NCBI GenBank assembly: GCA_001657295.1
Contig: LYSW01000018.1
Span: 1-42,510 of the forward strand
Length of the DNA stretch: 42,510 nucleotides
From: Oceanicaulis sp. BBD 1991-10
Lineage (GTDB): Bacteria > Pseudomonadota > Alphaproteobacteria > Caulobacterales > Maricaulaceae
Reading direction: 5' to 3'
Below are positions 1 to 34,285 of this stretch, piece after piece. The position numbers were made by a program, and so were the translations under genes. The notes below the pieces were generated by a model, which was not told where the DNA came from, made no database searches, and saw only the letters and a list, made by a program, of their open reading frames with translations. Positions within the stretch are counted from its first letter, which is position 1; each line of letters opens with the position of its first letter.

Positions 1-219
1 GATGTCCGCAAGGCCATGGAGGCTCTGCCGGAGGATCAACGCATCGCAATCATCCTCGTGGCGGTTGAGGGCTTCAGCTATTCGGAAACGGCGGAGACCC
101 TGGATATTCCGATCGGCACGGTGATGAGCCGGGTCGCGCGGGCGCGCAGAGCGCTGGCCGGCCAGTTCGGCGACGATGCGTTGCTCGCCGGAAAGGGAGG
201 CAGTCATGAACTTCACTGA
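1..219 (+). CDS. ECF-type RNA polymerase sigma factor, C-terminal part (5' end outside window)
   Basis: Only the last 72 residues are in the window; the frame is open at base 1. What is visible is sigma region 4, which binds the -35 element: a leader LPEDQRIAIILVAVEGFSY followed by the helix-turn-helix SETAETLDIPIGTVMSRVARA. The regions that bind core polymerase and the -10 element lie upstream. The stop overlaps the next gene, a membrane anti-sigma factor, by 14 nt, which is the usual arrangement for a sigma factor held inactive by a co-transcribed antagonist. By inference this sigma factor drives its own operon, which would include the ligase, TPR and barrel genes that follow. The family assignment is firm; the signal sensed is unknown. 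Confidence 0.9.
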   Translation, partial: DVRKAMEALPEDQRIAIILVAVEGFSYSETAETLDIPIGTVMSRVARARRALAGQFGDDALLAGKGGSHELH

Positions 220-961
220 TCAACAGCTGTCGGCCTATCTCGACGGCGAATTGCCTGAAGCGGAGGCGCGCGTCCTGGAGGCGGCGCTGCGGACCGATGC
301 GGCGCTTCGAGACGCGCTCGCCCGGCTCCAGAATGTCGACATCGTTCTGACCGAAACCCTTGGCGACATCATCGACGAGCCTGTCCCCGAGCATATCGCC
401 GCCCTGGTCGCAGACCCCGAACCCGCGCCGGCGGCGCCGGAGGCGCGCCGCTCCGTCATATCGCTGTCGGCCTGGAGGAAGCGGATGTCCGGTCTGACAA
501 TGCCGGTCGGCCTCGCCGCCTCCTTGATGGTCGGACTGATCGTCGGCGGTCAGTTTTCGGACCTGAGCGTTCAAGAGGCCGAGAGCGTCATGATCGCGGG
601 CGAGGTCGATCCAGGCTCGGCGCTGTACGCGGTGTTGGAAACCGCGCCCAGCGGCGCGACCGTCAGCGGGCTGTCGCCGACTTTGAGCTTTACGTCTGAA
701 ACCGGCGTATGCCGGGAGATCAGCGCTCCAAGCCAGCGCGCGCTCGCCTGCCGCGCGGCCTCGGTCTGGACCGTATTGGTGGTGACGCATCAGACCCCCT
801 CGAATGCCGGCGCCGGATATCAGACCGCCAGCGCGGAGACCTCCATCCTTTTCGACGTGCTCGCCGACCAGCTCATGACAGGGCCTCCGATGGCGGCGGA
901 CATCGAAGCCGCGCGCATTGAGAACGGATGGCGCGACCCGGATCAATCTCCCGAAGACTGA
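206..961 (+). CDS. Membrane-anchored anti-sigma factor
   Basis: This 251-residue protein begins with a typical anti-sigma N-terminal segment, LSAYLDGELPEAEARVLEAAL, which in this family packs against the sigma factor in the cytoplasm. One hydrophobic stretch at about residues 97-116 (TMPVGLAASLMVGLIVGG) would cross the inner membrane, leaving about 130 residues outside. The HxxxCxxC zinc motif of ZAS anti-sigma factors is absent. The start at 206 is preferred over an in-frame ATG at 176 because GGGAGG lies just upstream and the family homology begins there. It overlaps the sigma gene by 14 nt and ends 21 nt before the ligase fusion gene. The extracytoplasmic half has two cysteines (ETGVCREI and RALACRA), which could form a disulfide; that is inference. 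Confidence 0.85.
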   Translation: MNFTDQQLSAYLDGELPEAEARVLEAALRTDAALRDALARLQNVDIVLTETLGDIIDEPVPEHIAALVADPEPAPAAPEARRSVISLSAWRKRMSGLTMPVGLAASLMVGLIVGGQFSDLSVQEAESVMIAGEVDPGSALYAVLETAPSGATVSGLSPTLSFTSETGVCREISAPSQRALACRAASVWTVLVVTHQTPSNAGAGYQTASAETSILFDVLADQLMTGPPMAADIEAARIENGWRDPDQSPED

Positions 962-982
962 CGCGATCAAAGGATCAGAACC

Positions 983-3421
983 GTGCGAATTCTTGATGCC
1001 GCGCCGGTGCGTGCGCTCCTTAATCCTGTCTTGATTCTGGCGCTGGCCTGCGCGGCTTTGCTCGCGATTCATTTTCGTCAGTCGCCTGACACGCTGTCCC
1101 GATTGAAGGCGGAGACGCTGTACCAGTTCAGCCTCGCCATGCGCTTCGACGCCCAGAATTCCGAAGTCTCGGTCAACACCTATCTGCCGCGCTCCACGCC
1201 GCGGCAGGAAATCCTGCGCGAGGCGGTGCGGTCCGCGCATATGCAGTTTGACGACCGCAGCGACGAAAACGGCCGCGTCGGCAGTTGGTCCGGCCAGAAT
1301 GTCAATGAAATCCGATATGAAGCGCTGATCGCCTTGCAGCCGGTCCGCTTCGATCTGGCCGATGATCTCGCGATTCCGGACCGCCCGGCCGGATTCGACA
1401 TCCACTTGCGGGCGACCGACGGCATCCAGGTCGATCACCCGGAAATCGCTGAATTGTGGGCCTCCATCGCTCCGCTTCGGGTCAATGAGATGCGGCCTGT
1501 TCTGGAGGCGATCTTCCGCTTCACCTATCGCGACATCGCGCCGGCTCCGTTCAAGGGCTATACCGACGCCTTGACCGCCCTGAGGCTCCAGCAGGCCAGC
1601 TGCAACGGCAAAGGCCGCCTCTTCGTGGCGCTGGCGCGGCTCAACAACATACCGGCCCGTCTGGTCGGCGGCGTGGTGCTCGACGCGGGCTCCAAACGCA
1701 CCTCCCACCAGTGGGTGGAGGTGCTGATCGAGGGGCGCTGGGTGCCCTTCGACCCGACCCATGGCCACTTCGCATCGCTGCCGGAGAATTACCTGACCCT
1801 TTACACCGGCGATCAGTCGCTATTCACGCACAGCTCCAACATCAATTTCGACTACCGCTTTTCGATTCGCGAACAGCAGACATCCTCCGCCCTGTTTCGC
1901 TTTGAGCAGCGCGCCAACGACTTGCCGACCCTGAACGCCGCCGAACTGATGTCGCTGACCGGTCTCAATGAGAAGATGATCGGGGTGTTTCTGATGTTCC
2001 CGGTCGCCGCGCTGATCACCGTATTCCTGCGCAATGTGGTGGGCGTGCAGACCTTCGGCACCTTCATGCCGATGCTGGTCGCGGCGGCGTGCGTGCAGAC
2101 CGGCCTGGTCGTGGGCACTCTGGTTTTTGGCGGCGTGGTGGGGTTCGCCTTCCTGGGCCAAGCCTGGCTGGGGCGCTACAAGCTGCTCAAGGTGCCGCGC
2201 CTGTCGGCGATCATCACGCTGGTCACCCTGCTATTCATTGTTCTGCTCTACTATTTCGGGCGGGAAGTGGATCTGGAATTCGGCGTCCTGGCGCTCTTCC
2301 CGATCGTCATCATCGCCTTCCTGGCCGAACGCATCCACACCATGGCCGCAGAAGGCAATCTGCGCGGCATGCTAGTGTCCGCCGCCGGCACTATGGCGGC
2401 GATCGCCTGCTGCTATGTCGCGTTTTCCTCGGTGACCATGCAGGGCCTGATCGCGCTGCTGCCTGAGCTGCTGGTGCTGGTTCTGGCGCTGCAGATCGCG
2501 GCGGGACGTTGGACCGGCATGCGTCTGCTGGAGTATCTGCGCTTCCGCTCCATACTGAAGGCGGGGCCGGTGCTGTCGATCAATGCGCGCAATGTGGCGC
2601 TGGTGAACACGCTGAACACGCCCGAGCTTCTGGAGCTGGCCGCCGACAAGGTCAAAGCCAAAGCGGTCCTGCGCGAGCATGATGTCCCCGTCGCGGACGA
2701 TCTGGCAGTGTGTGAAACCCACACCCGGCTGGGCGCCTTGCTCGACGTCGCCAGCCAGCTCGACGGGTTTGCGCTCAAGCCCAATCGCGGGTCGCAGGGC
2801 AACGGCATCCTGATCATAAAGGGGCGCGAGGGTGAGAAATTCATCACGTCCGGCGGGCGCCGCCTGACCAGCGCAGACATCCATCACCATGCGTGCGAGA
2901 TTCTCGCCGGGTCATTCTCCCAGGACGGGTCGGAGGACATCGCCTTTGTCGAGCCTCTGCTCCAGCAGCATGCCCGGCTTGATCAAATCGCCGCGCTGGG
3001 CCTGTCGGACGTGCGGGTCATCCTGCACAATCAGGAGATCATCTCCGCCATGCTGCGCATGCCGACCAGCCTTTCGGGCGGCAAAGCCAACCTGCACCAG
3101 GGGGCCGTGGGCATGGCGATCAACCAGGCGACGGGCCGGATCACCCATGCCTCCATGAAAGGCCGGTCGGTGGAGCGCCACCCCGACACGTCGGCCCCGC
3201 TGATCGGCGTCCAGCTGCCCTGCTGGGACCGGATCAAGTTGATCGCCCGGAACGCCAGCGCAGCCATCCCGCTTGGATATATCGGCGTCGACATTTGCAT
3301 CGATCAGCAACGCGGCCCGCTGGTTCTGGAGGTGAATGGCCGACCGGGGATTGAAATTCAAAACGTCCAGAAGCGCGGCCTGTTCGCCGACCGGCCGGCG
3401 GGGGAGCTTCGCTATGCATAG
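983..3421 (+). CDS. Transglutaminase-like / multi-TM (UUP1-type) protein fused to a RimK-related ATP-grasp ligase
   Basis: This is an 812-residue fusion. Residues 11-30 are a membrane anchor. Residues about 40-300 are a periplasmic transglutaminase-like domain with C207 (QASCNGKGRLFVALARL), H242 (TSHQWVEV) and D257 (WVPFDPTHGHF). Residues about 330-512 form a bundle of hydrophobic helices matching the family called inactive transglutaminase fused to 7 TM helices. Residues about 520-812 are an ATP-grasp amide ligase of the alpha-L-glutamate-ligase-like type, with K599 (FALKPNRGSQGNGI), D770 (GYIGVDI) and E783/N785 (VLEVNGRPGIEIQN). In other proteobacteria known to me the two halves are separate adjacent genes. 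The ligase should act in the cytoplasm, joining an amine or amino acid to a carboxylate; the substrate is unknown. GTG start with AAAGGA upstream. Confidence 0.85.
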   Translation: MRILDAAPVRALLNPVLILALACAALLAIHFRQSPDTLSRLKAETLYQFSLAMRFDAQNSEVSVNTYLPRSTPRQEILREAVRSAHMQFDDRSDENGRVGSWSGQNVNEIRYEALIALQPVRFDLADDLAIPDRPAGFDIHLRATDGIQVDHPEIAELWASIAPLRVNEMRPVLEAIFRFTYRDIAPAPFKGYTDALTALRLQQASCNGKGRLFVALARLNNIPARLVGGVVLDAGSKRTSHQWVEVLIEGRWVPFDPTHGHFASLPENYLTLYTGDQSLFTHSSNINFDYRFSIREQQTSSALFRFEQRANDLPTLNAAELMSLTGLNEKMIGVFLMFPVAALITVFLRNVVGVQTFGTFMPMLVAAACVQTGLVVGTLVFGGVVGFAFLGQAWLGRYKLLKVPRLSAIITLVTLLFIVLLYYFGREVDLEFGVLALFPIVIIAFLAERIHTMAAEGNLRGMLVSAAGTMAAIACCYVAFSSVTMQGLIALLPELLVLVLALQIAAGRWTGMRLLEYLRFRSILKAGPVLSINARNVALVNTLNTPELLELAADKVKAKAVLREHDVPVADDLAVCETHTRLGALLDVASQLDGFALKPNRGSQGNGILIIKGREGEKFITSGGRRLTSADIHHHACEILAGSFSQDGSEDIAFVEPLLQQHARLDQIAALGLSDVRVILHNQEIISAMLRMPTSLSGGKANLHQGAVGMAINQATGRITHASMKGRSVERHPDTSAPLIGVQLPCWDRIKLIARNASAAIPLGYIGVDICIDQQRGPLVLEVNGRPGIEIQNVQKRGLFADRPAGELRYA

Positions 3422-5324
3422 GAAACGGACTTTGACGTCGGCGCCGGTGCTGTCTCTGGCGGTGATCGGCTTCGCCGCCGCGGCATGGGGTGTTGAACAC
3501 CAGATGCGGGTCAATAATGAGAGCCTGATGGCGTTCGCCCTGTCTTCCGACGACGGGCGCGAGTTTGAGGCCGGCCTTTCCAGCGACCTGTCCGAAACCG
3601 TGACCGCGGCGCTTACGCAGCGTGTATTGAGCACGCCCGCAGGAGACTTCGAGGCGGCCAGCCTGCAAGCGGACGCGCTGTTCCAGACAGCGCCGCAGGA
3701 GCGGCGGCGCGCCATGGTCGCCTTCACCGGCCGGCTGCTGTCGTCGCGCAATCGCTTCGAGGAAGCCCTGGCGGCGCTCAGCGTTTTAAGCGAAGCCGAG
3801 CGCAATCGCTTCAACGCCTCATTCGCCTATGCTGAGACGCTGAAGGGGCTGGGCGACGACGCCGCGGCGCTGGCCGCGTTCGAGCGCCATGTCGCCGCTC
3901 ATCCGAATCATCAGGCGGGCCATATCAACTACGCCATTTTGCTGATGCGGCTCGGCCGCCACGCCGAGGCCCTGCCCATTCTGGACCGCGCCGTGGAGAT
4001 CACAAGCGGCGGCCGGAAGGGCAAATCCCTGTCCCTGCGCGGAATCTCGCTCATGGAGCTGGGCGACTTCACCGGCGCCGAGGCCGCGTTTCAGCAGTCC
4101 ATCGAATATCGTCCCGGCCATGCGCCGACCTGGGGTCGGCTGGCCACGGCCCAGGCCCGCGGCGGCGCGTTCAGCCAGGCGGATGTGATCGCGACATTCG
4201 AACGCGCCATCGCCTTGGCGCCCGGCGATGGTCTGATCGAGAGCGGGCTGGCGCAATATTACTTCTCGGCGGGCCGGTTTGACGAGGCGCTCGGCCCCTA
4301 TCGAAGTGCGAGCCGCAACGCCCAGCACCGGGGCGAGGTCATGATCGATCGCGCCCTCAATCTGGTCCTGTCCGAACGCCCCTCAGCGGCCCGCAATGTC
4401 GTGCGGACCCTGAAAGCCGCAAACACCACCCGGGCTCAGGACCGGCAGATCGACTTGCTCGATGATATCTTGAACCGCTCGACGTCCGCCGTTTTGCGCC
4501 ACCTCCAGGCGCATGCCGATGCGCGCCAGATGACCGAGCGCGGCGTCTTTCTGCAAATCCTGGGGCATCTGGAGGTCGGCGACATCGCCATGGCGCAGCG
4601 CTATGCGGCCGATCTGCCGGCCAGCTCGAGCTATCACCAGCCCGCGCACTTCCAGATCGCGCGTCATCACTATCGGGCGGCGCGCGCGGACGCGGCGCGG
4701 TCGATTCTGTCAGAGTTGGTCGCCTCCAATGACCAAAGCCCCATCTTCTGGCTTTATCTGGGGCGTAGCGAACCGACGCCGGAGGCCGCGCTGATCGCCC
4801 ACCGCACCGCCCATGAATTGCTGCCGACCAGCGGCCGGATGGCCATTGAATATGCAGAGGCGCTCAATGCGGCGGGCCGAACCGCGGACGCGACCGCGAC
4901 CCTGTTCGCTTTCCTCGACGCGCAGCCGAATGAACCACGCGCGCTCCGGGCGCTTGCGAGAATTCATGACGCCAATCAGCAGCTTGACCGCGCCGAGCAG
5001 ATTTATCGGGTGATCCTTGATCTCAATGCCGAAGACGCCGGCGTCGGGCGCGCGCTCGCAGACATTCAGATTCGCGCCGGCCGGCTGGAAGCCGCGCTTG
5101 AGACGCTTGATCGCCTGATCGAATTGCAGCCTGCGCGCATCGATATCCGCGAACAGCGGGCGGACATCCTTATGACCCTCGGCAGAAGCGCCGACGCGCG
5201 CGCCGAGTTCGAGCGCATCCACCGGCTCGATCCGGACAACGCAACCGCAAACGCCTCCTTGAACGCCTTGGCCGGCTCCAGCCCGGCCGGGCGCATGAGT
5301 TTCAGCAGACAGGTGCAGCCATGA
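3414..5324 (+). CDS. Exported tetratricopeptide-repeat protein
   Basis: This is a 636-residue protein with a basic N-terminus and a hydrophobic segment (VLSLAVIGFAAAAWGV, residues 10-25) that is either a signal peptide or an anchor, so the rest is probably periplasmic. TPR-type helix pairs fill most of the protein from about residue 110, for example GDFTGAEAAFQQSIEYRPG, SAGRFDEALGPYRSA, LDRAEQIYRVILDLN and RSADARAEFERIHRLDPDN. TPR arrays are protein-interaction scaffolds. The chosen ATG overlaps the end of the ligase gene by 8 nt and has GGGGGAG about 8 nt upstream; an in-frame ATG at 3336 would lie inside the ligase gene. The TGA overlaps the next ATG (ATGA). A periplasmic TPR protein beside an outer-membrane barrel recalls exopolysaccharide exporters such as PgaA or BcsC, where the two are fused; that analogy is inference. 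Confidence 0.8.
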   Translation: MHRKRTLTSAPVLSLAVIGFAAAAWGVEHQMRVNNESLMAFALSSDDGREFEAGLSSDLSETVTAALTQRVLSTPAGDFEAASLQADALFQTAPQERRRAMVAFTGRLLSSRNRFEEALAALSVLSEAERNRFNASFAYAETLKGLGDDAAALAAFERHVAAHPNHQAGHINYAILLMRLGRHAEALPILDRAVEITSGGRKGKSLSLRGISLMELGDFTGAEAAFQQSIEYRPGHAPTWGRLATAQARGGAFSQADVIATFERAIALAPGDGLIESGLAQYYFSAGRFDEALGPYRSASRNAQHRGEVMIDRALNLVLSERPSAARNVVRTLKAANTTRAQDRQIDLLDDILNRSTSAVLRHLQAHADARQMTERGVFLQILGHLEVGDIAMAQRYAADLPASSSYHQPAHFQIARHHYRAARADAARSILSELVASNDQSPIFWLYLGRSEPTPEAALIAHRTAHELLPTSGRMAIEYAEALNAAGRTADATATLFAFLDAQPNEPRALRALARIHDANQQLDRAEQIYRVILDLNAEDAGVGRALADIQIRAGRLEAALETLDRLIELQPARIDIREQRADILMTLGRSADARAEFERIHRLDPDNATANASLNALAGSSPAGRMSFSRQVQP

Positions 5325-6451
5325 TGAAATCGCTCACGTTCACCGCATTGGGAGTCGCCTTGCTCAGCACGGCCGCCGAGGCGCAGCTCTCGGCTACGAT
5401 CGACGCTGGCTATGACGACAACCCATTCAGGCTTTCCAATGCGTTCGACCAGCGCCCGGGCGGGTTTCTGGAGGCCGAACTCAGGGCGGAGCACGGATTC
5501 GACACCGGCTTCACGCTGGACGCCCGGATCAGCCGCTTGTTTTCACAGAGCGAAGATGGCGACCGGACCCAATACTCGGCGACGCTCGGGTTTGAACACG
5601 GGGCGCGGATTTTCGGCAGACCGGCAGAATTCGAGCACCATGTCCGCATCGCCGGTCTTGATCGAACCTTCATCAGCCGGAATACGGGCGAGGTTGGGCG
5701 ATTTGGCGGTCAGGCGATTGCGGACCGTTTCGACCAGAATTCCGTTGAGGTCCGGTCACGGGCCGATATCGGGCTTTCCGAAGCCTGGACATTGCGCCTT
5801 CAGGGCGACGGGCGCAGCCGCGCCTATGAAAGCTACACCGGTCTGGGTCTGTCCAATCTGGACTATGATCAGCTCTTTGCTCATGTGCGGCTGCGGTATC
5901 GGCAGGATCCGACCCATGATGCGCAACTCGGCGCCTCCTTCGGCCGGCGCGTCTATGACGACCGGCGCGGGCGTGCGCTTGATACCGGCTTCGTCGCCGG
6001 GTCCGATCTCGAATTCAGCTTCTTCAGTGTCGATGCGAGCTGGAAATATGAATTCCTGCCCGATCATGACCTCCGCTTCGCCTACGCCTATGACGTCCGA
6101 GAGGACAATGTGACGGGCTATTACGACACCACCCTGCACAGCGCCCGGGTCCGCTATCGCTATATGCCGAGCTGGGGCAACCGGTTTTCGATTGAGCTCG
6201 AGCGGCGCGATTTTGATTTCGACAATATTCCGGCGGCGCTCATCATCAATGATGAGGAAAATGTCGCTCCGAACGACGGCGTCAGGCTGCGCCTGGCCTA
6301 TGACCGGCGGCTGGTGCGCACCCGGGAGCGCGAGCTGTGGCTGGATGCATCCCTGACATATGATGATTTCGACAGCCCCAACGCCGCCTATGTCTACGAC
6401 CGGTTGGCGTTTCGGATCGGCGTGAAGTTTGAATTCAGCCCTTTCGGCTGA
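5321..6451 (+). CDS. Outer-membrane beta-barrel protein
   Basis: This 376-residue protein has a clear signal peptide (MMKSLTFTALGVALLSTAAEAQ) and then alternating amphipathic strands rich in aromatic, Asp and Arg residues, such as FTLDARISRLFS, TQYSATLGFEHGA, VRLRYRQDP and NRFSIELERRDFDF. It ends with a final strand (AFRIGVKFEFSPFG). This is the pattern of an outer-membrane barrel of roughly 16 strands; I cannot assign it to a named porin family. Its ATG overlaps the TPR gene stop by 4 nt, so the two are translationally coupled and likely work as a pair. It is the last gene of the operon; a LysR gene converges on it 49 nt downstream. Role as an export channel or surface receptor is inference. 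Confidence 0.8.
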   Translation: MMKSLTFTALGVALLSTAAEAQLSATIDAGYDDNPFRLSNAFDQRPGGFLEAELRAEHGFDTGFTLDARISRLFSQSEDGDRTQYSATLGFEHGARIFGRPAEFEHHVRIAGLDRTFISRNTGEVGRFGGQAIADRFDQNSVEVRSRADIGLSEAWTLRLQGDGRSRAYESYTGLGLSNLDYDQLFAHVRLRYRQDPTHDAQLGASFGRRVYDDRRGRALDTGFVAGSDLEFSFFSVDASWKYEFLPDHDLRFAYAYDVREDNVTGYYDTTLHSARVRYRYMPSWGNRFSIELERRDFDFDNIPAALIINDEENVAPNDGVRLRLAYDRRLVRTRERELWLDASLTYDDFDSPNAAYVYDRLAFRIGVKFEFSPFG

Positions 6452-13996: not shown

Positions 13997-16900
13997 ATGG
14001 ACACTCGCAATAAGCTGGGAACCAAAACGGCCTTTCGCGCCGCCCTGCTGACCAGCGCCGGGCTCGCCGCCCTTGTTGCGGCGTCGGCTCACGCAACGCC
14101 GATTTCCAAGGCCTCGCCAGCCTTTAGCATTGACACCCAGGTGGAGATGTCGCTGACGCTGAAGCCGGTCGACGGCGCCAAGCGCTTCCGCCTCAACACG
14201 GTCGGCGACACCGTCGTCAATCCCGATACCGGCGCGACCGAGACCATTGTCGAGGTCATCAGCACCAATGTGGTGCGCACCAATGCGGGAAACGTCATCA
14301 TTCTCGCCGACGCGGTCGGGGACACCTTTGTCGAGTTGACCGCCGCGAGCGGTTCGACCTCAGACACCATCGATTTTGAAGACGCCACGATCGAGCTGAC
14401 CTGGCGCGTGACGGCGGTGACGACCGACGGCTCGGGCAATGTCATCAGCCTGGACGTCGAACGCGTCGACGACACGACGATCACCGAGACGGTGGATCGG
14501 GTGGTTGATATCTCCGGCAGGATTGCGGGCGAAGCGAACTCCGACGGCGCGGACGGCTCCGGCGCCTCGTCCGGCTCGCTGACCCCGGGCGTCAATGACG
14601 TCAACGCCTTCTCCCGCGTCAGCAACGGCGATGACGGCTCGAACGGGTCCAGCGGCGGCGGGGTGCGGATCTGTATTCCCTTCATCGGCTGCGCGACGAT
14701 CGGCAAGGACCCGACCGACGGCGGCGACGGCTCGACCGCCGATCCGATTGATGAGGACGTGACCACCGCCAATAACGGCGATATTTCAACCGTCACCGAC
14801 GAGCTGCCCGGCATAGCGCTGACCAGCCGCGGCGGCGATGGCGGCAATGGCGGGTCCAGCTATGTCAGCCTGAACCTGCCGGGCGCGGACGGCGGCGATG
14901 GCGGCGATGGCGGCGACATCACGCTCGTCGCCGACGTCAACATCACCACGACCGGTGAGAACGCCCACGGCATCTCCGCGCAATCGGTCGGCGGGGAGGG
15001 CGGCAATGGCGGCGACGGCTATGGCGTCGACGGCAGCGGCGGCACGGGCGGGCGCGGCTCGCAAGGCGGCACAGTCACCGTGGAGAACCATGGCGACATC
15101 CTGACCACCGGCAAAGGCGCCATCGGCATATTCGCTCAGAGCGTCGGCGGAGAAGCGGGCAACGCCGGCGATGCGGGCGGCATCGTGGCCTCCGGCGGCG
15201 CGGCGGTGGCGGGCGGTCAGGGCGGCGATGTCTCGGTGCTGAACTCCGGCCGCATCGAGACCCGCGGTGAGAACGCCTATGGCATTCTGGCGCAATCCAT
15301 CGGCGGCGACGGCGGCAATGCGGGCGACGGCGGCGGTGTCGTGGCGTCCGGCGGCGATGGCGGCGTCGGCGGCACGGGCGGCGACGTTCATGTCGAGACG
15401 CTGTCGAGCTCGACCATCACCACCAGCGGGCTGAACGCCCATGCGATCTTCGCCCAGTCCGTGGGCGGCGGCGGCGGATCGGGCGGTGACGGCGCGGGCA
15501 TTGTCGGCCTGGGATCCACCGGCGATTCCGGAGGCGATTCCGGCACGGTGACCGTCATAAATGCAGGCGGCGTATCGACCAGCGGGGTGCGGGCGCGCGG
15601 CATCTTCGCCCAGTCCGTGGGCGGCGGCGGCGGCGACGGCGGGTCCGGCGGCGGCCTGGTTTCGGTCGGCGGGTCCGGCGGTCAGGCCAGCACCGGCGGC
15701 GTGGTCACGGTCACCAATAGCGGCGACATCAGCACGGCGAATTCTGATTCCAACGCCATTCAGGCCCAGTCCATCGGCGGCGGCGGCGGCGACGGCGGCA
15801 GCTCGGGCGGGGCTTTCTTCACTATTGGCGGTTCTGGCGGCGGCGGCGGGGATTCCAGCACCGTCACCGTTAACCATAGCGGCGACATCACCACGTCGGG
15901 CGATGATTCCCGCGGCATCTTCACCCAGTCCATCGGTGGCGGCGGCGGCAATGGCGGTTACGCCACCTCGGTCAGCGTCTTCGCCGGGGTCGCCATCGGC
16001 GGCACGGGCGGCGATGGGGGCGATGGCGGCGCGGTCGACATCAATTTCTCCGACCGCACGGTCAACGGTCAGCTCTTTTCTCCGCTGATCCAGACTTCCG
16101 GCGACCGGTCCCAGGGCGTCTTCGCCCAATCGGTCGGCGGCGGCGGCGGCAATGGCGGCGCGGCGGTGCAGGTCACCGTCGGCTACGGCCTGGCGGCGAG
16201 CATCGCGGTCGGCGGCGACGGCGGCGCGGGCGGTCTTGGCGGCGACGTGTCGGTGGACGGCGACGTCATCATCCTCACCCAGGGCGAACGGTCTGAAGGC
16301 CTGTTCGCTCAGTCGGTCGGCGGCGGCGGCGGCAATGGCGGCTACGCCGTCTCCATCGCCGTGACGGCCGGCTCGCCGGCCTCCGGCTCGATCTCAGTCG
16401 GCGTGGGCGGCGAGGCGGACAGCGGCGGCGCGGGCGGCGAAGTCAGCATTGATAGCGGCGGCGCGATCACCACGCTGGAGGATTTCTCGACCGGTCTGGT
16501 CGCGCAGTCTGTCGGCGGCGGCGGCGGCAATGGCGGCTTCAGCGTGTCGGTGTCTGTCGCGAGCGGCGCCGGCGCCTCCGGCGCGATCGGGGTCGGGGTC
16601 GGCGGCTCCGGCGGCGATGGCGGCGCGGGCGGCCTCGTCAACGCGGGATTTGACGGCACAATCACCACGGGCGGCGATGATGCCGGCGGCGCCCTGATCC
16701 AGTCGGTCGGCGGCGGCGGCGGCAATGGCGGCTATAATGTCACCGCCTCGGTGGCGCTGTCCGGCGGCCTGTCGGGCGCCGCGGCGATCGGCGTGGGCGG
16801 CGATGGCGGGCTGGGCGGCGCCGGCGGCGCGGTCACCGGCTCGGTCGGCGGCGATGTCGAAACATCGGGCGATCGCTCCACCGGCGTGATCGTTCAGTCG

Positions 16901-19900
16901 GTCGGCGGCGGCGGCGGTAATGGCGGCTTCAACGTGTCCGGCGCGATCGGTGCAGGCGGGGCTGCGGGCGGCGCGGTGTCGGTCGGCGTCGGCGGCGCCG
17001 GTGACGCTGGCGGCGCGGGCGGGGACGTCACCGGCTCGGCGGGCGGCGCCATCACCACGTCCGGCGATCAATCCGGCGGCCTTCTGGTCCAGTCTGTGGG
17101 CGGCGGCGGCGGCAATGGCGGCTTCAACGTGTCCGCAGGGATCGGTTCCGGCGGCGTCTTCGGCGGCGCTCTTCAGGTCGGCGTGGGCGGCGCCGGCGGC
17201 GCCGGCGGCGATTCGGGTGATGTTGAAGGCACGGCCGAGGGCCCGGTGACCACTCGCGGCGAGTCCTCCTCCGGCGTTGTGATCCAGTCGCTGGGCGGCG
17301 GCGGCGGCAACGGCGCGTTCAACGTGTCCGCCGGCATCGGTCTCGGCGGTACGGTCGGCGGCAATCTCGCCATCGGAGTCGGCGGCAGCGGCGGACCGGG
17401 GGGCGATGCTGGCGATGTGACCGGTACGGTTAACGACACCGTCATGACGGAAGACCATCTCTCCGCCGGCGTGGTGGTCCAGTCGGTGGGCGGCGGCGGC
17501 GGCAATGGCGGCTTCAACGTCTCCGGCGGCATTGGTGTCGGCGGCACGGTCGGCGGCGTGCTCAATGTCGGCGTCGGCGGCAGCGGCGAGGGCGGAGGGG
17601 ATGGCGGCGAAGTCGACGCTTCGGCCCAAGCCATCGGCACCCTGGGTGATCAAGCCGCCGCCTTTCTCGCTCAAAGCGTCGGCGGCGGCGGCGGCAGCGG
17701 CGCCTTTTCGATCGCGGGCGGCATCGGCGGCGGCGGCACCGCGGCCGGCACGATCAATATCGGCGTCGGCGGCGCCGGCGGGGATGGCGGCGACGCCTCC
17801 CGCGTGGGCGCTTCGGTGACCGGCGATGTGACGACGCAGGGCGAATCCTCCAGCGGCATCGTCGCCCAGTCCCTGGGCGGCGGCGGCGGCAATGGCGGCT
17901 TCTCGATCGCGGGCGGCATCGCCCTGGCCGGCTCGGCGGCGGGCAATCTGAATGTCGGCGTCGGCGGCTCCGGCGGCCTGGGCGGGCAGTCCGGCGATGT
18001 CCGCCTGGACGCGGTCGGCGCGACGATGACCCAAGGCGCGCTGAGCGACGCGGTCGTCGTTCAATCCCTGGGCGGCGGCGGCGGCAATGGCGGGTTCAAC
18101 GTCACCGGCGGGATCGCGCTGTCCGGCTCGGCGGCCGGCAATATCGGCGTCGGCGTCGGCGGGTCCGGCGGCGGCGGCGGAGACGCGGGAACGGTCACCG
18201 CCTATATCAACGAGAACGTCGTCGATGCGGACGACACCCTGCTCGCGGCGTCGACCGCGGACGACAACGCCCGCGCCGTCACCGTGCAGAGCATTGGCGG
18301 CGGCGGCGGCAATGGCGGCTTCAACGTCACGGGCGGATTGGCGATTTCGGCGGCCGGAGCCGGCAATATCGGTGTCGGAGTCGGCGGCTCCGGCGGCGAT
18401 GGCGGCGCGTCCGACAATGCGTTCGGCGGCGTCAACGGCGACATCGTCACCCTGGGCGACGAGTCCTCGGGTCTTCTGGTCCAGTCGGTCGGCGGCGGCG
18501 GCGGCAATGGCGGCTTCAACGTCTCCGGCGGCGTCTCGGCGACCAAGACGGTGGCCGGCAATATCATGGTCGGCGTCGGCGGGGTCGGCGGAGATGGCGG
18601 CGACGCCGGCTCGGCCACGGGATTTCTGACCGGCGACGTCTCAACCGACGGCGACCGCTCGGCCGCGGTGACCTATCAGTCCCTGGGCGGCGGCGGCGGC
18701 AACGGCGCCTTCAACATCACCGGCGCGATCGCGCTGTCCGGCGGCGGCGCCGGTAATATCGGCGTCGGCGTGGGTGGTTTTGGCGGTCTTGGCGGTGATG
18801 CGGCCCTGGTAAACGCCGCCATCACCGGCGATATCGACACCGATGGGGATGATTCCCACGCCATCCTTTTACAATCGCTCGGCGGCGGCGGCGGTAATGG
18901 CGGTTTCAACATCACCGGCACGATCAGCGCCAGCAAAGCCGCGGCCGGCACGCTGGGCGTCGGGATCGGCGGCTTCGGCGGCGGGGCGGGCGATGCGTCC
19001 ACCGTGAACGGCGTGTTGACGGGCGATGTGGTCACCCGGGGCGAGAACAGCTTTGGCGCCGCATTGCAATCCATCGGCGGCGGCGGCGGCAATGGCGGAC
19101 TGAACGTCACCGGCTCCATCACGCTGGCGACCTCGAACAACCCCTCTGTGGCCATCGGATTCGGCCTGGGCGGATTTGGCGGCTCCGGCGGCGATTCCGA
19201 TGATGTCACCGGAGAGGTGACCGGCGACTACATCACCGTCGGAGACAACGCCGATGGCGTCGTCGCGCAGTCGATCGGCGGCGGCGGCGGCAATGGCGGC
19301 ATCAATGTCACCGGCTCGGTGGCGCTCAGCGCCGGCACGGCCGGGACCGGCTCCATCGGCATCGGCGGTTTCGGCGGCGCGGGCGGAAACGCCGGCGATG
19401 TCGACCTGACTTACGCCGGCGACATCATCACCACGGGTGAGAACGCCGACGGCTTCATGGCTCAATCGCTGGGCGGCGGCGGCGGCAATGGCGCGATCAA
19501 TGTCACCGGCGCGATCAGCGGAACGACCAACGGCAATGCGGCCAGCCTGGGCTTCGGCATCGGCGGCTTCGGGGGCGATGGCGGAGACAGCGGCGATGTG
19601 ACCGCCAGCGTGACCGGCAATGTCCTGGCCCAGGGCTTTGGCGAGGACATCCTCACCGACGAGCAAGTCTTCGATCTGACCAGCCTGGGTGTCGACGCCA
19701 CCTTCACGATCGACGCCGAACGCACCCGCACCAACGGGTCCAACGGCGTTGTGGCTCAATCGATCGCCGGCGGCGGCGGCAATGGCGGCATGAATGTCAC
19801 CGGCCAGATCTCCGTGACCCAACCGGGCAGCACGCAGGTCGCCAGTCGCGCCTTCACCATCGGCATCGGCGGATTCGGCGGCGGCGGCGGCGACGCCGGC

Positions 19901-22900
19901 GATGTCGACCTGACCGTGGGCTCGCCGGACGATGATCGCGTTCAGGTGCAAGCGGTTGGCGACGACCGCTCAGCCGTGATGGCGCAGTCGATCGGCGGCG
20001 GCGGCGGCAATGGCGGGATGAACATCTCCGGCGGCATCGCCATGGACGGCACGCTGACCATCGGCGTCGGCGGCTTCGGCGGCGCTGGCGGACGGGGCGC
20101 CGATGTCGTCGCTGATGTGGACGCCGATCTGTTCGCTTCCGGCGACCAGGCGCGCGGCCTGGCGGCGCAATCCATCGGCGGCGGCGGCGGCAACGGCGCC
20201 ATCAATATCGCCGGCGGGATCACAGCCAGCACCGTGACCTCCGATCCAGCGATCGTCTTTGGTCTGGGCGGTGACGGCGGCGCCGGCAATGAATCCGGCG
20301 ACGTCACGGTCACGCAGCGGGGTCAGATTCAGGTGGATGGCGAGGACGCCATCGGCCTTCTGGCGCAATCCGTCGCCGGCGGCGGCGGCACGGGCGGCCT
20401 GAATGTCAGCGCGGCCCTAAGCCTCAGCGGCGGCCTTTCGGGCGGAAGCACGCGCGGCTGGATCGCTAATGTCGGCATCGGCGGCAGCGGCGGCGCGGGC
20501 GCGGACGCGGGCGACGTGTCCGTCAACAGCCGCGGCTTGATCCTGATCAATGGCGAACTGGATCCGGACGCCGGGGTTGATGACGATCCCTTCCGCTCAA
20601 CCGAATTCACCGGCGGCGCCACCGGCCTGCTGGCGCAATCGGTCGGCGGCGGCGGCGGCACGGGCGGGATGAACATCACCGGCTCCATCGCGCCCCAGGG
20701 CAATCCCGCCAACCTGGCCGTCGGCGGCTCCGGCGCGTCGGGCGGTGACGGCGGCCGGGTGGACGTGGTCCGCGGCTATGACGCGTCCAACACGCTCGAC
20801 CCCAGCCTGATCCGCACCTTCGGTGACGATTCCACCGGCCTATTCGCCCAGTCCGTCGGCGGCGGCGGCGGTGACGCCGGGATGAATTTCAACTTCGCCG
20901 GCGCGACCGGCAATGAAACCAATAATCCGGTCGCGGCGCTGATCACCATCGGCGGCTCCGGCGCAGGCGCGGGCAGCGGCGACGCGGTCAGCGTCACCCA
21001 TGCCGGCGACATCATCACGGACGGCAAATACTCCATCGGCCTTCACGCCCAATCGCAGGGCGGCGGCGGCGGCAACGCCAATTTCAACATTGGCGTCGGC
21101 CTGTTAAACAGCGCCAGCTCGTTGAATGTCGCTTTGGGCGGCGCAACCGGCGCGGCCGGGTCCGGCGGCGACGTCACCGTTGATCATATCGGCGCCATCG
21201 TCACACTGGGCGACGGGGCTGAAGGCATTTTGGCCCAGTCGGTCGGCGGCGGCGGCGGCAATGCCGGCACCGACTTCAACATGTCGCTGCTGGCGTCCAA
21301 TTCGATCGATATCGTCCTGGGCCGCCAAGGCGGCTCAGGCGGTGAAGGCGGCGATGTCACCGTCACCGCGGCCGGCGTCGTGGATACGACGGGCGATGAC
21401 AGCTCCGGCATCGTCGCGCAATCGGTCGGCGGCGGCGGCGGCTCCAGCTCGGCGACCTCGATCGGCGGGGCGGTCACCCGCGGCGACGAAACCTTCCAGG
21501 CCAATTTCGCGTTCGGCATCGAAGGCGGCGCCGGCGCCACGGGCGGCGATGTCGCCATCGAGTCCTCCGCCGCTGTCACGACGCGCGGCGATGAATCACG
21601 CGCCCTGTTCGCGCAGAGCGTGGGCGGCGGCGGCGGCGCCGGCGGCATGGCCACCAATATCGTTCTAAGAACGGCCGGCTCCCTGACCTTCGGCATGGGC
21701 GGCGCGGGCGGCACGGGCGCCACCTCCGGCGCGGTGGATGTCGCCAACACCGCGACCTTGATCACCGAGGGTGACCGGTCCGACGGCATTCTGGCGCAGT
21801 CCATCGGCGGCGGCGGCGGAACCGGCGGCATGGCCATTACGACCGCGTTTCAGGTCGGCGGCGTGCCCGACAGCACCACCTCGCGCACCGTCGCGATCAA
21901 TGTGGGCGGCTCGGGCGGCACGGGCGCGGCCGGCGGCGATGTGACCGTTGATAATTCCGGCGTCATCTCAACACAGGGCGAATACGCCTACGGCATTCGC
22001 GCGCAATCGGTCGGCGGCGGCGGCGGCATCGGCGGCGCCGTGATGAATCTGCGCGCTCAGGGCAAAGGCAATAACCAGGCGCTCGACATCAATGTCGGCG
22101 GCGCCGGCGATGATGGCGGTGAAGGCGGCGATGTGGACGTCACCAATACCGGCATGATCTTCACCACCGGCGGTGAAGCCGCGGGCATCGTGGCGACCTC
22201 GATCGGCGGCGGCGGCGGTGATTCCGGCACGGTGATCAATGCGGTCGGCGGCGTGTCCGGTTCCGACAACAACTCCATTCAAGCCGCGATCAATATCGGC
22301 AGCGAGGGCGGAACCGGCGGCCGCGGCGGCGACGTGATCGTCTCGAACATGACCACGGCCGACGCCGGGTCCGGCCAGATCGTCACGACAGGCGAAAACG
22401 CCTACGGCATCTTCGCCCAGTCCCTGGGCGGCGGCGGCGGCAACGGTTCGACGGTCTATTCCGTCACCGGCATGCAGAGCAGCGAGAACAGCTTCATCGG
22501 CTCCTTCAATCTCGGCGGCGCCGGAGGCCAGGGCAATACCGGCGGCATGGTCGAGGTGGTCAATGAAGGTCTGATCGACACCACCGGCGACGGCGCTCAC
22601 GGCATTCTGGCGCAATCGGTCGGCGGCGGCGGCGGCAATGGCGGCCTGGCCGTCGGCGTCAACGCCGCGATCGGCGCGCGCGCCAATTCGCCCATCATCG
22701 CGATCGGCGGCGTCGGCGGCGACGGGGAAAATGGCGGCGATGTCGTCGTCACCAATTCCGGCACGATCGTCACCCGCGGCGAAGCGGCCCACGGCATCGT
22801 CGCCCAGTCGATCGGCGGCGGCGGCGGCAATTCCTCCATGGGCTTCGGCGTCACCGGAGAGCCCAACACCCTTATTCTGTCCAACGCCATCTCGGCCCTG

Positions 22901-25900
22901 GTCGGCGGCCTGGGCGGCGGCCTGGGCGGTGAAGGCGGCGATGTCACCGTCAATCACTCCGGCGACATCACCGTTCTGGGTGACCGCTCGCAAGCGATCA
23001 AGGCGGAGAGCACTAATGGCGGCGGCGGCTCGCTGGAAATCCGCTTCGACGGGTTGGCCGGCTTTGAAACCCTGCCGATCATTGGCCCGCTGATCGGGGA
23101 AGGCAGCGATTCCGACGTCGACGTGCCGACCGTGCAGATGGTCAATGGCAGCTCGGACGCGTCCGATATGAACGCCGGCCGCGTCACATTGAATCTGTCG
23201 GGCACGTTCGGCGTCGCCGGGCAAGACAGTGCGGCCGTGGCCAACCAGGCGATCGGCGGCGGCGGCGGAACCACCGACCTGATCGTCACGCTGTCCACGG
23301 GCGAGGCCGATGCGGCGCAACTGCCGGTCAATTTCGAGGCGCGCCTCGGCGCCACGAATGGCGACAGCAATTCCGGCGGTGAAATCACCACCACCCATTC
23401 CGGCGACGTGGTCACCACGGGAACCAACACCCATGGCGTCCTGATCCAGTCCATCGGCGATGGCGGCGGCCGGGTGGTGATGGACATCACCGCGCCGGAG
23501 GGCGCCGAGATCGGGACCATCGACCTGCAGCTCGGCGGCGAAAATGGCGTCGACGGCGTGGGCGGGGATGTCTTCCAGACCCAATCCGGGTCGATCACCA
23601 CCACCGCCAATCTGGCGGCGGGCGCGATCCTGCAATCCATCGGCGGCGGCGGCGGGATCGCTTCGATCGACATCAGCGGCTTCGGTGCAGGCGATGCGGG
23701 CGTCAGCGCGTCCTTCGGCGCTGATGGCGGCTCGGGCAATCATGGCGGCGCGATCACCGCGGACTTGAGCGGCGGGGTGGCGACGCTGGGCGACGACGCC
23801 CAGGGCCTGGTGGTCCAGTCCATCGGCGCCGGCGGCGGCGAGGTGCGCGTCCAGGGCGTTGAAACCATGGACGTCTTCTTCGGCGGGGTGTGTTGCGCCG
23901 CGGGCGATGGCGGCGCGGTCACGCTGACCAATTCCGGCTCGATCACCACCGAAGGCGCGCGCGCTCACGGCGTGTTCCTGCAATCGATCGGCGGCGGCGG
24001 CGGCGCGGTGTTCGGCGATGTCGGATTCGGCACGGTCGATCTGTCCGATGAAGGCGTCGGCGACGGCGGGGCCATCAACTTCACCCAGAACGGTGACATC
24101 GTGGTCCGCGGCCTGGGCGCCTACGGCGTCATCGCCCAGTCATTGGGCGGCGGCGGCGGCTGGGCCGGCCAAGGCTATGTCGCCGGCGGCGAGGGCGATG
24201 GCGGCGCGATCACTCTGGACATCAACGGCGCGGTCTTCGCGCCCGGCCAGGACAGCACGGCGGTTTTCGCGCAGAGCCGCCGCGCGACCGGCGCGGGCGA
24301 CATCATCGCGCTGATCCAGGGCCTGGTGCGCGGCGGCGACGGTCTGGGCGCGGGCGTCATGTTCGATGGCGGCGCCAACAATCAGCTGACGGCGTTCGGT
24401 TCGGTCTCCTCGATCTCCGGCCTGGCGATCAACACCACCAGCGGCGACGACACCGTCAGCAATTTCGGCCTCGTGGTCGGCAATGTCGATCTTGGATCGG
24501 GCTCGAACCGCTTCAACAATGAAGCCGGCGCGACGTTTATCGCGTTTGATACGATCGATCTGCGTGATCCGGCCGGTTCCACCGGGACGGCCGGCCCTGC
24601 CGCGCAGACCGCGGCCGTTTCGATCGAGCCGCTCAGCGACGGGACGCCGAGCCAGGCGGATGCGTCGAACGCGGCGGTGTCCGTCACGACTCTGCCGCCC
24701 ATGGCGAGCCCGAACCGTGCGCCGGAGCCCAGCCCGGCCTACCGCGCCAGCCTCGCCGACGCGCCGGAGGGCGCGGAAACGGCGTCTGCGCGCGCCGGCG
24801 CGGCGGATATCGTTCTACAGGGCGCGGCGCCATCGGCCGCTGAGGACGTGTCGACGTCTCAAGGCGAGCTCATCGCGGTGGTCTCGGCCGCCCCCGCCGC
24901 GACGCCCAGCCTTGTCGGCGCGCCGGGGACCTTCACCAATGCGGGCGATTTTCTGATGGGACTGTCCGCGCCCCGCTTCCCGATCGACCTTCTCAACGGC
25001 GACACCTTCGGGAATCTGGACAATCAGAGCGCGCCTGCGACCAATCTTCTGTTCGGCGCCCGGGTGATCAACACGGTCGAGTTAGACGGCGATTACGTTC
25101 AAACCGAGACCGGTCATCTGGCCTTTGACGTGGCGTTCGGACCCTATGCCTCCGACATCGTCAATGTCAGCGGCGACACGGTGGTCGACGGAACCGGCGA
25201 GGTGATCCTCACCTGGCTGGAGAGCGACGAGAACCGCACCCTGTTCGCCACGGCGGGAACCGCTGTGGACAACGGCCTGGAGATTGAAGACACAATCGCC
25301 ATCGATTACGGCATCGTCGCCAACGCCGAAGGCATCCAGCTCACCTTGAAGAGCGATTTCGGTCAGGACTTCCTCAATCAGAACGGCCAGGCGATGGGCG
25401 TTCATATCGATCGCGCCATCCGCGCGGACGACTCAGCCGGCATCGGCCGGCTCGGCGCCTTGCTGGGCAATCTCCAGGCCGGTCAGGAAGACGTCTACAC
25501 GGCGATCTTCACGGAGCTGGATCCGTCCGGACACCTCGCGCCGCTGCACGCCCAGCTGGGCAATGCGCAGCATTTCGCCGGCGAGCTCTTCTCCTGCGAA
25601 AGCCCGGTGCGCCGGGTCGAAGGTCAATGCGTGTGGACGCGCTTGGAGGCCTCGGCCTCAACCCGCGGCGAGACGTTCGAGACCTTCTCCGTTGAAGCGG
25701 ACGCGACCCATTTCCGCGGCGGTTTCGAGCAACGCCTGGACAATGATCTCTGGACCGTCGCCGCGGGCATCGGCTACGACCATCTGGGCAGCTTCCGCGT
25801 CGACAACACCCGCATGCGGGCGAGTGGTCAGGCCCTGCACGCGGGCCTTGGCTTCGAGCGCACCAGCCCGGTCTCCGGCACGATTATCGGCGGCGGCGTG

Positions 25901-26464: not shown

Positions 26465-26709
26465 TACGTTCCGGGATGACCGCATGAAGCGGGTCCGGGG
26501 GCGCAGGCGGGCCCGGAGCGGACCGCCTGTTCAGAACCGGGCGCGGCCGCTGCGCACCGGTGGCGCGCGCCTTTGAACGGCCCGGTCGCGGGCCGCTCGA
26601 CGCGCGCCGAATTCAGCCTTGCTCTGGACATCAAATGACATCGTTGTCAAAAGTGGTGATGGAAGGGCGGCCGGCCGTCCGTCTCATGTTTCGCAGTCAG
26701 GGGGCCTTC
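26465..26709. other. Intergenic region between autotransporter and GH17 gene
   Basis: This is 245 nt without a supported gene. It has a GC-rich imperfect inverted repeat (TCCGGG 26494-26499 with CCCGGA 26512-26517) but no T-run, so I do not call a terminator. The notable element is the LacI-like palindrome at 26636-26649. GGGGG at 26699-26704 precedes the chosen GH17 start. Confidence 0.4.
26636..26649. promoter_or_regulatory. LacI-type operator candidate upstream of GH17
   Basis: The site TGACATCGTTGTCA is a 14-bp dyad with the central CG typical of LacI-family operators; all but one symmetric pair match. It fits the consensus TGACAACGTTGTCA at 13 of 14 positions. It lies 61 nt before the GH17 start and about 1.1 kb before the LacI gene itself, so this regulator is the natural candidate to bind it. 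Confidence 0.55.
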
Positions 26710-27609
26710 ATGGGCAAGCTTCACCGTCAACACCTGATCTGGTCCGGGATCGACATGCATGGTCTGGGAGAATCGGGCATGGGTCCGATCATCGAGGAGG
26801 TGCTCGCGGAAAAGCTGCACGGGGTTGCGTTCAGCCCCTATGTCGACGGCCAGGACAATAAGACCGAGGTGGGCGCCGAGCAGATCCGCGCCCGCATGGA
26901 AATGCTGGCGCCGCATACCCGTTGGATCCGGACGTTTTCCTGCACGCGCGGTAACGAGCTGAGCCCGGGCGTGGCGCGGGAGTTGGGCCTTAAAACCATG
27001 GTCGGCGTCTGGATCGATGACGATCTTGCCTACAACGAGCTCGAGCTCGCCGCCGGCATCGAGATCGCAAAGCGCGGCGAGGCGGGCGTCCTCGCCATCG
27101 GCAATGAGGTGATGCTTCGCGAAGAGCTCACGGAAGACCAGCTGATCGCCTATATCGAACGCGCGAAATCCGAGCTTTCAAAGGCCGGGGTCGATGTGCC
27201 GGTGGGCTATGTCGACGCCTATTTCCTGTTCGAAAACCATCCGCGGGTGGCGGCGGCCTGCGATGTGATCCTGGTCAACTGCTATCCCTTCTGGGAGGGC
27301 TATCCGATCGAGCACGCCCATATCTATATGCGCGAAATGTATCGCCGCGCGCAGCGGGTGGCGAACGGCAAGAAGGTGATCATCGCCGAGACCGGCTGGC
27401 CGAATATCGGCACGCCGGACCGGGGCGCCGTGCCGTCGCGGGCCAACGCCATGAAGTATTTCCTCGACGCGGTGCGCTGGACCCAGGACGAAGGTATTGA
27501 GCTGTTTTATTTCGCCGGATTCGACGAAGCCTGGAAGATCGCCAGCGAGGGCGATGTCGGCGCCTATTGGGGCCTGTGGGACAAGGATGGCGCGCCGAAA
27601 TACGTCTAG
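26710..27609 (+). CDS. Glycoside hydrolase family 17 (beta-1,3-glucanase-like), no signal peptide
   Basis: This is a 299-residue (beta/alpha)8 enzyme of the GH17 clan. The likely acid/base is E133 in AIGNEVMLREEL and the nucleophile is E227 in IIAETGWPN; both motifs are diagnostic. Marine bacterial GH17 enzymes known from laminarin loci attack beta-1,3-glucan chains. There is no signal peptide, so it should be cytoplasmic and act on imported laminari-oligosaccharides. The ATG at 26710 is chosen because GGGGG lies about 6 nt upstream and the fold begins here; a longer frame (ATG 26635, GTG 26560) would run over the LacI-like operator. It precedes the LacI gene on the same strand, with a 125-nt gap. 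A transglycosylase activity cannot be excluded. Confidence 0.85.
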   Translation: MGKLHRQHLIWSGIDMHGLGESGMGPIIEEVLAEKLHGVAFSPYVDGQDNKTEVGAEQIRARMEMLAPHTRWIRTFSCTRGNELSPGVARELGLKTMVGVWIDDDLAYNELELAAGIEIAKRGEAGVLAIGNEVMLREELTEDQLIAYIERAKSELSKAGVDVPVGYVDAYFLFENHPRVAAACDVILVNCYPFWEGYPIEHAHIYMREMYRRAQRVANGKKVIIAETGWPNIGTPDRGAVPSRANAMKYFLDAVRWTQDEGIELFYFAGFDEAWKIASEGDVGAYWGLWDKDGAPKYV

Positions 27610-27734
27610 CCTGGCTTCCGGCTTCGAAACGCCTGTCGCGGTGTGATTACACCGCCTGGCGTTGCATCAGCTTGTCAATCGCGCTGGGGCGGGCGAGTCT
27701 TGGGCCAGCGAACTGCATTCGATCCGGGCGGGCC

Positions 27735-31738: not shown

Positions 31739-31765
31739 TCGATCAACGTCCTTAAGGAGAGCGAG

Positions 31766-32746: not shown

Positions 32747-32780
32747 GCCGGCGAGAAGAGCGCACAAAGGCGCCTGATCC

Positions 32781-34244: not shown

Positions 34245-34285
34245 GCGGGAGCGCATGAGGCGGCTTGTCCTGTTGCACAAGGCGA

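What the first reader, a model, noticed from the sequence alone, without database searches (positions are those of the whole stretch)
1..6451. Possible undescribed ECF-controlled ligase plus TPR/outer-membrane barrel system
Five genes are packed as one operon: ECF sigma, membrane anti-sigma, transglutaminase-like/multi-TM/ATP-grasp fusion, exported TPR protein and outer-membrane barrel. Overlaps are 14, 8 and 4 nt, plus one 21-nt gap. Related ATP-grasp amidoligase loci predicted in comparative genomics usually pair the membrane protein and ligase with a peptidase-like gene. Here no peptidase is seen; a periplasmic TPR and a barrel take its place, like the export half of synthase-dependent polysaccharide secretion. 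The inference is an inner-membrane peptide or amide-bond synthase tied to an outer-membrane conduit under surface-stress control.
Basis: partly seen in the sequence, partly recalled or inferred. Interest (0 to 1): 0.75.

Follow-up and report, generated by a model that had tools for sequence, protein, structure and literature searches.

The report
Membrane ligase with outer-membrane outlet
A marine bacterium carries a membrane-bound bond-forming enzyme packaged with a transglutaminase-like domain whose catalytic residues are intact, a periplasmic scaffold and an outer-membrane barrel; it is a sister version of a recently described stress-tolerance system, and it may make and push out an unknown glutamate-based product.

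Summary
The five genes are there exactly as described; the sigma gene is cut by the contig start. The 7TM/ATP-grasp pair belongs to the Rlo (RloB/RloC) kind but forms a separate side of the tree. Window-type loci (15 of 15) keep a Cys-His-Asp triad in the transglutaminase domain and have a TPR gene next to the ligase; a retropepsin is near in 0 of 15. Of 62 Rlo-type loci examined, 0 have the triad, 60 have a retropepsin next door (two are cut by contig ends) and 1 has a TPR gene near. The barrel accompanies the module in 9 of 15 genomes from two classes and is missing in 6 Henriciella/Hyphomonas-type genomes. Sigma/anti-sigma lie beside the module in 2 genomes, with a conserved ECF-like promoter. 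Outside the window, divergent from sigma, lies a subtilase with a 16-residue poly-glutamate run. Best reading: a variant Rlo-like system in which an active transglutaminase domain plus a TPR/barrel outlet stands in for the retropepsin. Product and export are inferred, not shown. New variant of a known kind.

The parts
1..219 (+). ECF sigma factor, C-terminal 72 codons (region 4); N-terminal part on contig C13
   Evidence: Sigma70_r4_2 E 5.5e-18; N-terminal piece at G000:C13:44166-44375; intact 174-aa homologue in L031
206..961 (+). anti-sigma factor, one transmembrane segment (residues about 96-114)
   Evidence: zf-HC2 E 1.7e-6; hydropathy; 60% identical in Maricaulis
983..3421 (+). fusion: N-terminal TM, periplasmic transglutaminase domain, 7TM domain, cytoplasmic ATP-grasp ligase
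   Evidence: PF01841 2.5e-16, PF14402 3.5e-43, PF14397 2.6e-57; topology from hydropathy
1517..1756 (+). transglutaminase core, triad Cys207 (1601-1603), His242 (1706-1708), Asp257 (1751-1753)
   Evidence: Pfam range residues 179-258; triad intact in 15 of 15 window-type loci, 0 of 62 Rlo-type
1955..2554 (+). multi-TM (7TM_transglut) domain, approximate limits
2588..3385 (+). ATP-grasp ligase domain, RimK-like fold
   Evidence: PF14397; this part of the model has block pLDDT mostly 61-92, best PDB match RimK 4iwx E 3.3e-8
3414..5324 (+). periplasmic TPR protein, probably anchored in the inner membrane
   Evidence: TPR families; hydrophobic segment 9-27; next to the ligase in 15 of 15
5321..6451 (+). 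outer-membrane beta-barrel with signal-peptide-like N-terminus, 14 to 16 strands
   Evidence: model with 14 strands, pLDDT 54.7; profile A5 strong in 9 of 22 genomes tested, 8 of these 9 being in the profile itself

Best explanation
A variant of the Rlo kind of membrane amidoligase system. Shown by sequence: a RimK-like ATP-grasp domain sits at the end of a multi-TM domain, placed in the cytoplasm by hydropathy; a transglutaminase-fold domain with an intact Cys-His-Asp triad sits on the same chain, placed in the periplasm; a TPR protein and usually an outer-membrane barrel are encoded next. Inferred: the ATP-grasp domain makes an amide-linked, probably glutamyl, product or tail; the 7TM part carries it or its acceptor to the periplasm; the transglutaminase domain trims or transfers it, standing in for the RloA retropepsin; the TPR protein guides it to the barrel, the outlet or final site. 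In this genome and in one Maricaulis the set is probably switched by an ECF sigma/anti-sigma pair that reads its own promoter.
For: Triad intact in 15 of 15 window-type and 0 of 62 Rlo-type loci. Retropepsin near in 0 of 15 against 60 of 62; the two misses are cut by contig ends (by tblastn). TPR next in 15 of 15 against near in 1 of 62. Tree with 15 window-type and 19 of the 62 Rlo rows: each type is one side of a branch (99/97 and 100/99), also with the transglutaminase part removed (100/100). The own genome (98.95% complete) has no PF05618 retropepsin. ATP-grasp part folds like RimK. In two f17 genomes a putative barrel precedes a 7TM/ATP-grasp pair without transglutaminase domain, and their ATP-grasp nests among the window type. 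In P. aeruginosa, loss of RloB or RloC rescues loss of the RloA proteases (PMC12239564: passages, sections 8 and 12 read).
Against: No substrate or product is known for any member. Barrel absent in 6 of 15 genomes, so it is not essential to the core. A PF05618 match exists elsewhere in 10 of the 15 module genomes (15 places: seven in ORFs of 467-513 aa, seven in ORFs of 219-244 aa, one of 162 aa), so the swap is complete only in the own genome and 4 of 5 f189 genomes. Lumen charge estimate runs from -7 to +15 in eight barrels. The TPR-barrel contact was not modelled. The transglutaminase part of the model is poor, so triad geometry is untested. In the ATP-grasp tree the f17 rows fall inside the window type, while the one f17 row stands outside on a long branch. 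L090 (f17) has a retropepsin three genes away.
Confidence: 0.45

Rival explanations
1. Cross-linking, not export: the transglutaminase domain joins the ligase product to envelope proteins or peptidoglycan, and the TPR/barrel pair anchors the complex to the outer membrane.
For: Transglutaminases form amide bonds (established knowledge); an exported transglutaminase is proposed for bond formation in archaeal pseudomurein (PMC11915815, passages read); Rlo mutants have cell-shape and cell-wall drug phenotypes (PMC12239564).
Against: Rlo relatives have a protease beside an inactive version of this domain, which points to cleavage; nothing tested here tells hydrolysis from transfer.
Confidence: 0.2
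2. Polysaccharide route: the ATP-grasp domain adds an amide group to a glycan that the TPR/barrel pair exports, as in synthase-dependent secretion.
For: PF14397 is named sugar-transfer associated ATP-grasp; TPR plus barrel resembles the PgaA, BcsC, AlgK/AlgE layout (recalled; abstracts listed); the f120 barrel L087 touches PgaA_barrel weakly (E 0.019, below cut-off); one g25 locus (L056) has a glycosyltransferase-like ORF downstream, by eye.
Against: No glycosyltransferase among the five genes and none seen by eye as a constant neighbour (Pfam was not run on neighbours); the top structural matches of the ATP-grasp part are amino-acid ligases.
Confidence: 0.15
3. The barrel is the substrate: the module modifies or assembles its own outer-membrane protein, with the TPR protein as chaperone.
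For: Constant gene order where the barrel is present; among 22 genomes tested strong barrel matches occur only in the 9 with the module, though 8 of these built the profile.
Against: TPR and ligase persist without the barrel in 6 genomes.
Confidence: 0.1
4. ECF/anti-sigma/subtilase form the real unit and the ligase module is only a neighbour.
For: Sigma and anti-sigma are absent from 13 of 15 module loci; the divergent subtilase shares the sigma promoter region.
Against: Same order in two genera at 60-82% identity, gap of 21 nt here; no terminator-like site between anti-sigma and fusion.
Confidence: 0.1

Closest known systems
RloABC system of Pseudomonas aeruginosa (RloA retropepsin, RloB inactive transglutaminase-7TM, RloC ATP-grasp; PMC12239564)
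   Same: Same 7TM and ATP-grasp families and membrane layout; aligned parts 24-33% identical to RloB-type and 33-40% to RloC-type proteins.
   Different: Here the transglutaminase triad is intact, no retropepsin is adjacent, the ligase is fused to the membrane protein, and TPR and barrel genes are added.
RimK/RimB ribosome-modifying pair
   Same: ATP-grasp glutamate-ligase fold.
   Different: RimK/RimB are cytoplasmic (PMC12239564, passages); here the ligase is membrane-bound.
Synthase-dependent exopolysaccharide secretion (PgaA, BcsC, AlgK/AlgE)
   Same: Inner-membrane enzyme, periplasmic TPR, outer-membrane barrel in one operon.
   Different: No glycosyltransferase among the five genes; TPR and barrel stay below the PgaA and BcsC cut-offs.

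Membership tests
RloABC system | 7TM_transglut membrane protein plus ATP-grasp partner | tested here: met
   PF14402 3.5e-43 and PF14397 2.6e-57
RloABC system | secreted RloA retropepsin next to rloB | tested here: not met
   0 of 15 window-type loci; none in the own genome
RloABC system | transglutaminase domain inactive | tested here: not met
   Cys-His-Asp intact in 15 of 15; activity itself not assayed
RloABC system | score over NCBIfam cut-offs for RloB / rimK_rel_E_lig | tested here: not met
   130.1 against 900 and 229.8 against 314.2 bits
Synthase-dependent exopolysaccharide secretion | membrane glycosyltransferase synthase | tested here: not met
   none among the five genes
Synthase-dependent exopolysaccharide secretion | periplasmic TPR protein | tested here: met
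   TPR families and N-terminal hydrophobic segment; location inferred
Synthase-dependent exopolysaccharide secretion | outer-membrane export barrel | tested here: inconclusive
   14-strand low-confidence model; best PDB matches general porins at low TM-score
ECF sigma / membrane anti-sigma pair | sigma regions 2 and 4, TM anti-sigma next to it | tested here: met
   region 4 in the window, regions 2 and 4 in the Maricaulis homologue, TM segment
ECF sigma / membrane anti-sigma pair | sigma reads its own promoter | tested here: inconclusive
   conserved GGAAT-N16-CGTC block upstream of sigma in two genomes; use by this sigma is inferred
Poly-glutamate making ligase | glutamate ligation activity | not testable with these tools
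   RimK-like fold only

The most novel reading that the evidence does not exclude
A trans-envelope synthesis and export machine for a non-ribosomal poly-amino-acid (or for poly-glutamylated surface proteins), built on a membrane ATP-grasp ligase with an active periplasmic transglutaminase domain and a TPR/barrel outlet; the divergently encoded subtilase with a genome-encoded poly-glutamate run (16 Glu here, 23 in the Maricaulis counterpart) would be its built-in client or regulator.
Probability: 0.22. Interest if true: 0.85.

Novelty: new variant of a known kind. Interest (0 to 1): 0.6.

Why it matters
What RloB and RloC make is an open question: deleting them rescues cells that lack the RloA proteases, and RloA cuts poly-glutamate in vitro, but its physiological substrate is not known (PMC12239564). 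A sister system with an intact transglutaminase triad and a TPR/barrel pair in place of the protease suggests where that product goes (periplasm, then perhaps out) and offers harmless marine bacteria in which to look for it. It also suggests that the label inactive transglutaminase is wrong for one branch of this family.

Tried and rejected
Barrel as polyanion pore: lumen charge not consistent, dropped. Barrel homology to the f17 barrel: hhalign 67% probability, E 5.1e-5, but profile A5 finds nothing in the two f17 genomes at E 1; left open. A weak barrel hit in G278 (E 4.7e-4, 1 of 298 other genomes of the order sample) was fetched (L091) but not analysed. Solved relatives by sequence: none for the fusion; barrel hits look like chance, best a collagen adhesin at E 1.6e-5. 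Full-length fusion model: only the ATP-grasp part is usable. Other ECF regions of the own genome (four stretches, about 57 kb) for a subtilase or poly-Glu run: none. Plasmids: 6 records, none covering 80% of the query: two with membrane and ligase parts, two ligase-only, two transglutaminase-only. The 26 genomes with only short matches were not pursued. Thresholds differ: E 1e-3, 1e-20, 1e-60, 1e-40, so split loci are under-sampled in the class and phylum samples.

Literature searches: for this kind of system; 92 and 102 for side questions. In the listings the Rlo paper (PMC12239564: passages, sections 8 and 12 read) and a vesicle screen (PMC12096838: passages read) concern this membrane protein; PMC10318531 names an inactive transglutaminase once and was seen as a listing only. 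None of the listings I saw describes a TPR or barrel partner. The paper that first predicted such loci (Iyer 2009) is not held; its content is recalled, so a mention of this variant there cannot be excluded.

Full report
OBSERVATION. Pfam gives: sigma region 4; zf-HC2 anti-sigma; Transglut_core (2.5e-16), 7TM_transglut (3.5e-43) and ATPgrasp_ST (2.6e-57) on one 812-residue chain; many TPR families; no family over cut-off for the barrel. NCBIfam points to the RloB membrane protein and the alpha-L-glutamate-ligase-like family, both below their cut-offs. The window is contig C14 of a 3.22-Mb, 98.95% complete genome; a sigma N-terminal piece lies at the end of contig C13. No terminator-like site separates anti-sigma and fusion.

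RELATIVES. Family sample (E 1e-3): 29 of 137 genomes match, of which 2 (own and G076, Maricaulis sp. BWSM_11) have the full fusion, 1 (G043) has a split locus, 26 have short partial matches that I did not follow. Class sample (E 1e-60): 6 of 385: own, 2 fused (f120), 2 f17, 1 split. Phylum sample (E 1e-60): 20 of 398: own, 5 f189 (another class; transglutaminase-7TM and ATP-grasp as separate genes), 2 f17, 12 split. In the class of f189, 5 of 78 genomes carry it; in the order of f120, 2 of 4, with a third genome split. The patchy spread suggests horizontal transfer or repeated loss (inference). Several of the genomes are metagenome-assembled.

NEIGHBOURHOODS. I took the DNA around all 15 window-type loci and all 62 split loci just listed (47 in the order, 12 in the phylum sample, G043, G648, G1102). 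Genes were called by a simple codon-score script. Window type: TPR gene directly after the ligase in 15 of 15; no retropepsin within four genes in any (6 to 8 genes seen per locus) and none by tblastn in these loci. The fusion-TPR overlap is 8 nt in the window, in Maricaulis and in the six g25 loci. Three more named records of the g25 kind (L071, L072, L076) also have the TPR gene. Barrel: directly next in G000, G076, G593, G681, G904, G871, G805, G1001; in G836 the TPR gene lies at a contig end and the barrel is on another contig; absent in the six g25 genomes apart from one weak partial hit (G352, E 2.9e-5). Of the nine strong matches, eight were in the profile; only G836 is independent. Rlo type: retropepsin adjacent in 18 of 19 and 42 of 43; both misses (L032, L134) are cut by the contig end. 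TPR near in 1 of 62 (L088, a 445-aa protein). No barrel relative in any Rlo locus by blast.

TRIAD. In an alignment of 34 transglutaminase domains, Cys207, His242 and Asp257 are present in 15 of 15 window-type rows; Cys and His are absent in 19 of 19 RloB rows. Of 43 further RloB rows, 0 have the triad; 5 keep a His at that column, none the Cys.

TREES. With membrane and ATP-grasp parts together, the window type (15 rows, 99/97) and the Rlo type (19 of the 62, 100/99) are each one side of a branch; the one f17 row stands outside on a long branch. With the transglutaminase part and f17 removed both types are 100/100. The trees are unrooted, so which state came first is not shown; loss of the triad in the Rlo branch is the more natural direction (inference). 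In an ATP-grasp-only tree the two f17 genomes fall inside the window type (98/96), which then is not one group by itself. They have a putative barrel gene (signal-like start and terminal Phe by eye; L089 scores E 0.018 for OMP_b-brl, below cut-off), a 7TM protein without transglutaminase domain, and the ligase. The program warned of long branches meeting in all three trees.

RETROPEPSIN ELSEWHERE. PF05618 is absent from the own genome and from four of five f189 genomes, present somewhere in the other 10 of 15, so the swap is complete only in some.

BARREL AND FOLDS. AlphaFold2 on two sequences gave 14 strands at mean pLDDT 54.7; two more amphipathic stretches would make 16 (my reading). Foldseek best matches are general porins such as OmpG, E 6.6e-5, TM-score 0.28 of the query, so no known export family is indicated. 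The f120 relative passes the cut-off of OMP_b-brl. The fusion model is usable only in the ATP-grasp part, whose top matches are RimK, ArgX/LysX and similar amino-acid ligases. Hydropathy gives one N-terminal TM plus about seven, which puts the ATP-grasp domain in the cytoplasm and the transglutaminase domain in the periplasm (inference).

REGULATION AND A SURPRISE. Upstream of sigma, own genome and Maricaulis share a near-identical block GGAATAAAAC..TGAAACGTC, which fits an ECF-type promoter (GGAAT, 16 bp, CGTC; consensus recalled); within 3 mismatches it occurs once in the own genome, control 0. Relatives of the anti-sigma were found in no other fetched locus; a 32% sigma relative lies in one Rlo locus, L088. 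Divergent from sigma, about 94 bp away, the own genome encodes a 548-residue protein with an N-terminal hydrophobic segment, a run of 16 Glu in a long acidic stretch, and a subtilase domain (PF00082, 3e-31). Maricaulis has a similar N-terminus with 23 Glu, cut by a contig end before any protease domain. In about 1.6 Mb of fetched DNA (overlapping copies counted), runs of 8 or more Glu occur only in this protein. RloA of P. aeruginosa cut reporters with 8 or 10 Glu but not with 6 or fewer, and no genome-encoded poly-Glu candidate was found there (PMC12239564, section 8). The link is suggestive only; an acidic linker or an anti-sigma-cutting protease are simpler readings.

MECHANISM. P. aeruginosa genetics say that RloB/RloC make something that RloA must handle: losing the RloA proteases is harmful, losing RloB or RloC as well rescues. 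In the window type that outlet would be the active transglutaminase domain, the TPR/barrel pair, or both; in g25 the domain; in f17 perhaps the barrel, although L090 also has a retropepsin three genes away. This outlet rule fits most loci seen but is my inference.

VERDICT. Real, conserved, and a distinct branch of the Rlo kind.

Noticed in passing
L126 8417-10063 (contig C13 of the same genome), L031 14444-14764: Subtilase with a 16-Glu run (own) and a Maricaulis counterpart with 23 Glu, divergent from the sigma gene; poly-Glu runs of 8 or more occur in no other ORF of the loci scanned.
   Followed up: partly
L089 4963-7958, L090 6155-8889: f17 genomes: putative outer-membrane barrel, 7TM protein without transglutaminase domain, and ATP-grasp ligase in a row; a third arrangement of the family.
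   Followed up: partly
window 13997-26464: 4155-codon ORF with signal-like N-terminus, Gly-rich tandem repeats and no Pfam match at E 0.001.
   Followed up: no
window 36799-42510: Giant Calx-beta / Ig-like repeat protein, 1904 codons and open at the window end, with a 327-bp tandem repeat.
   Followed up: no
window 26686-36563: GH17, LacI regulator, TonB receptor, GH16, MFS sugar transporter and GH3: looks like a beta-glucan (laminarin-type) utilisation locus (substrate recalled).
   Followed up: no
L109, L110, L112, L113 upstream of the transglutaminase gene: A 174-187-residue similar-looking membrane protein precedes the module in four of five f189 loci; Pfam, run on the L112 copy only, gives PepSY_TM below cut-off.
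   Followed up: no
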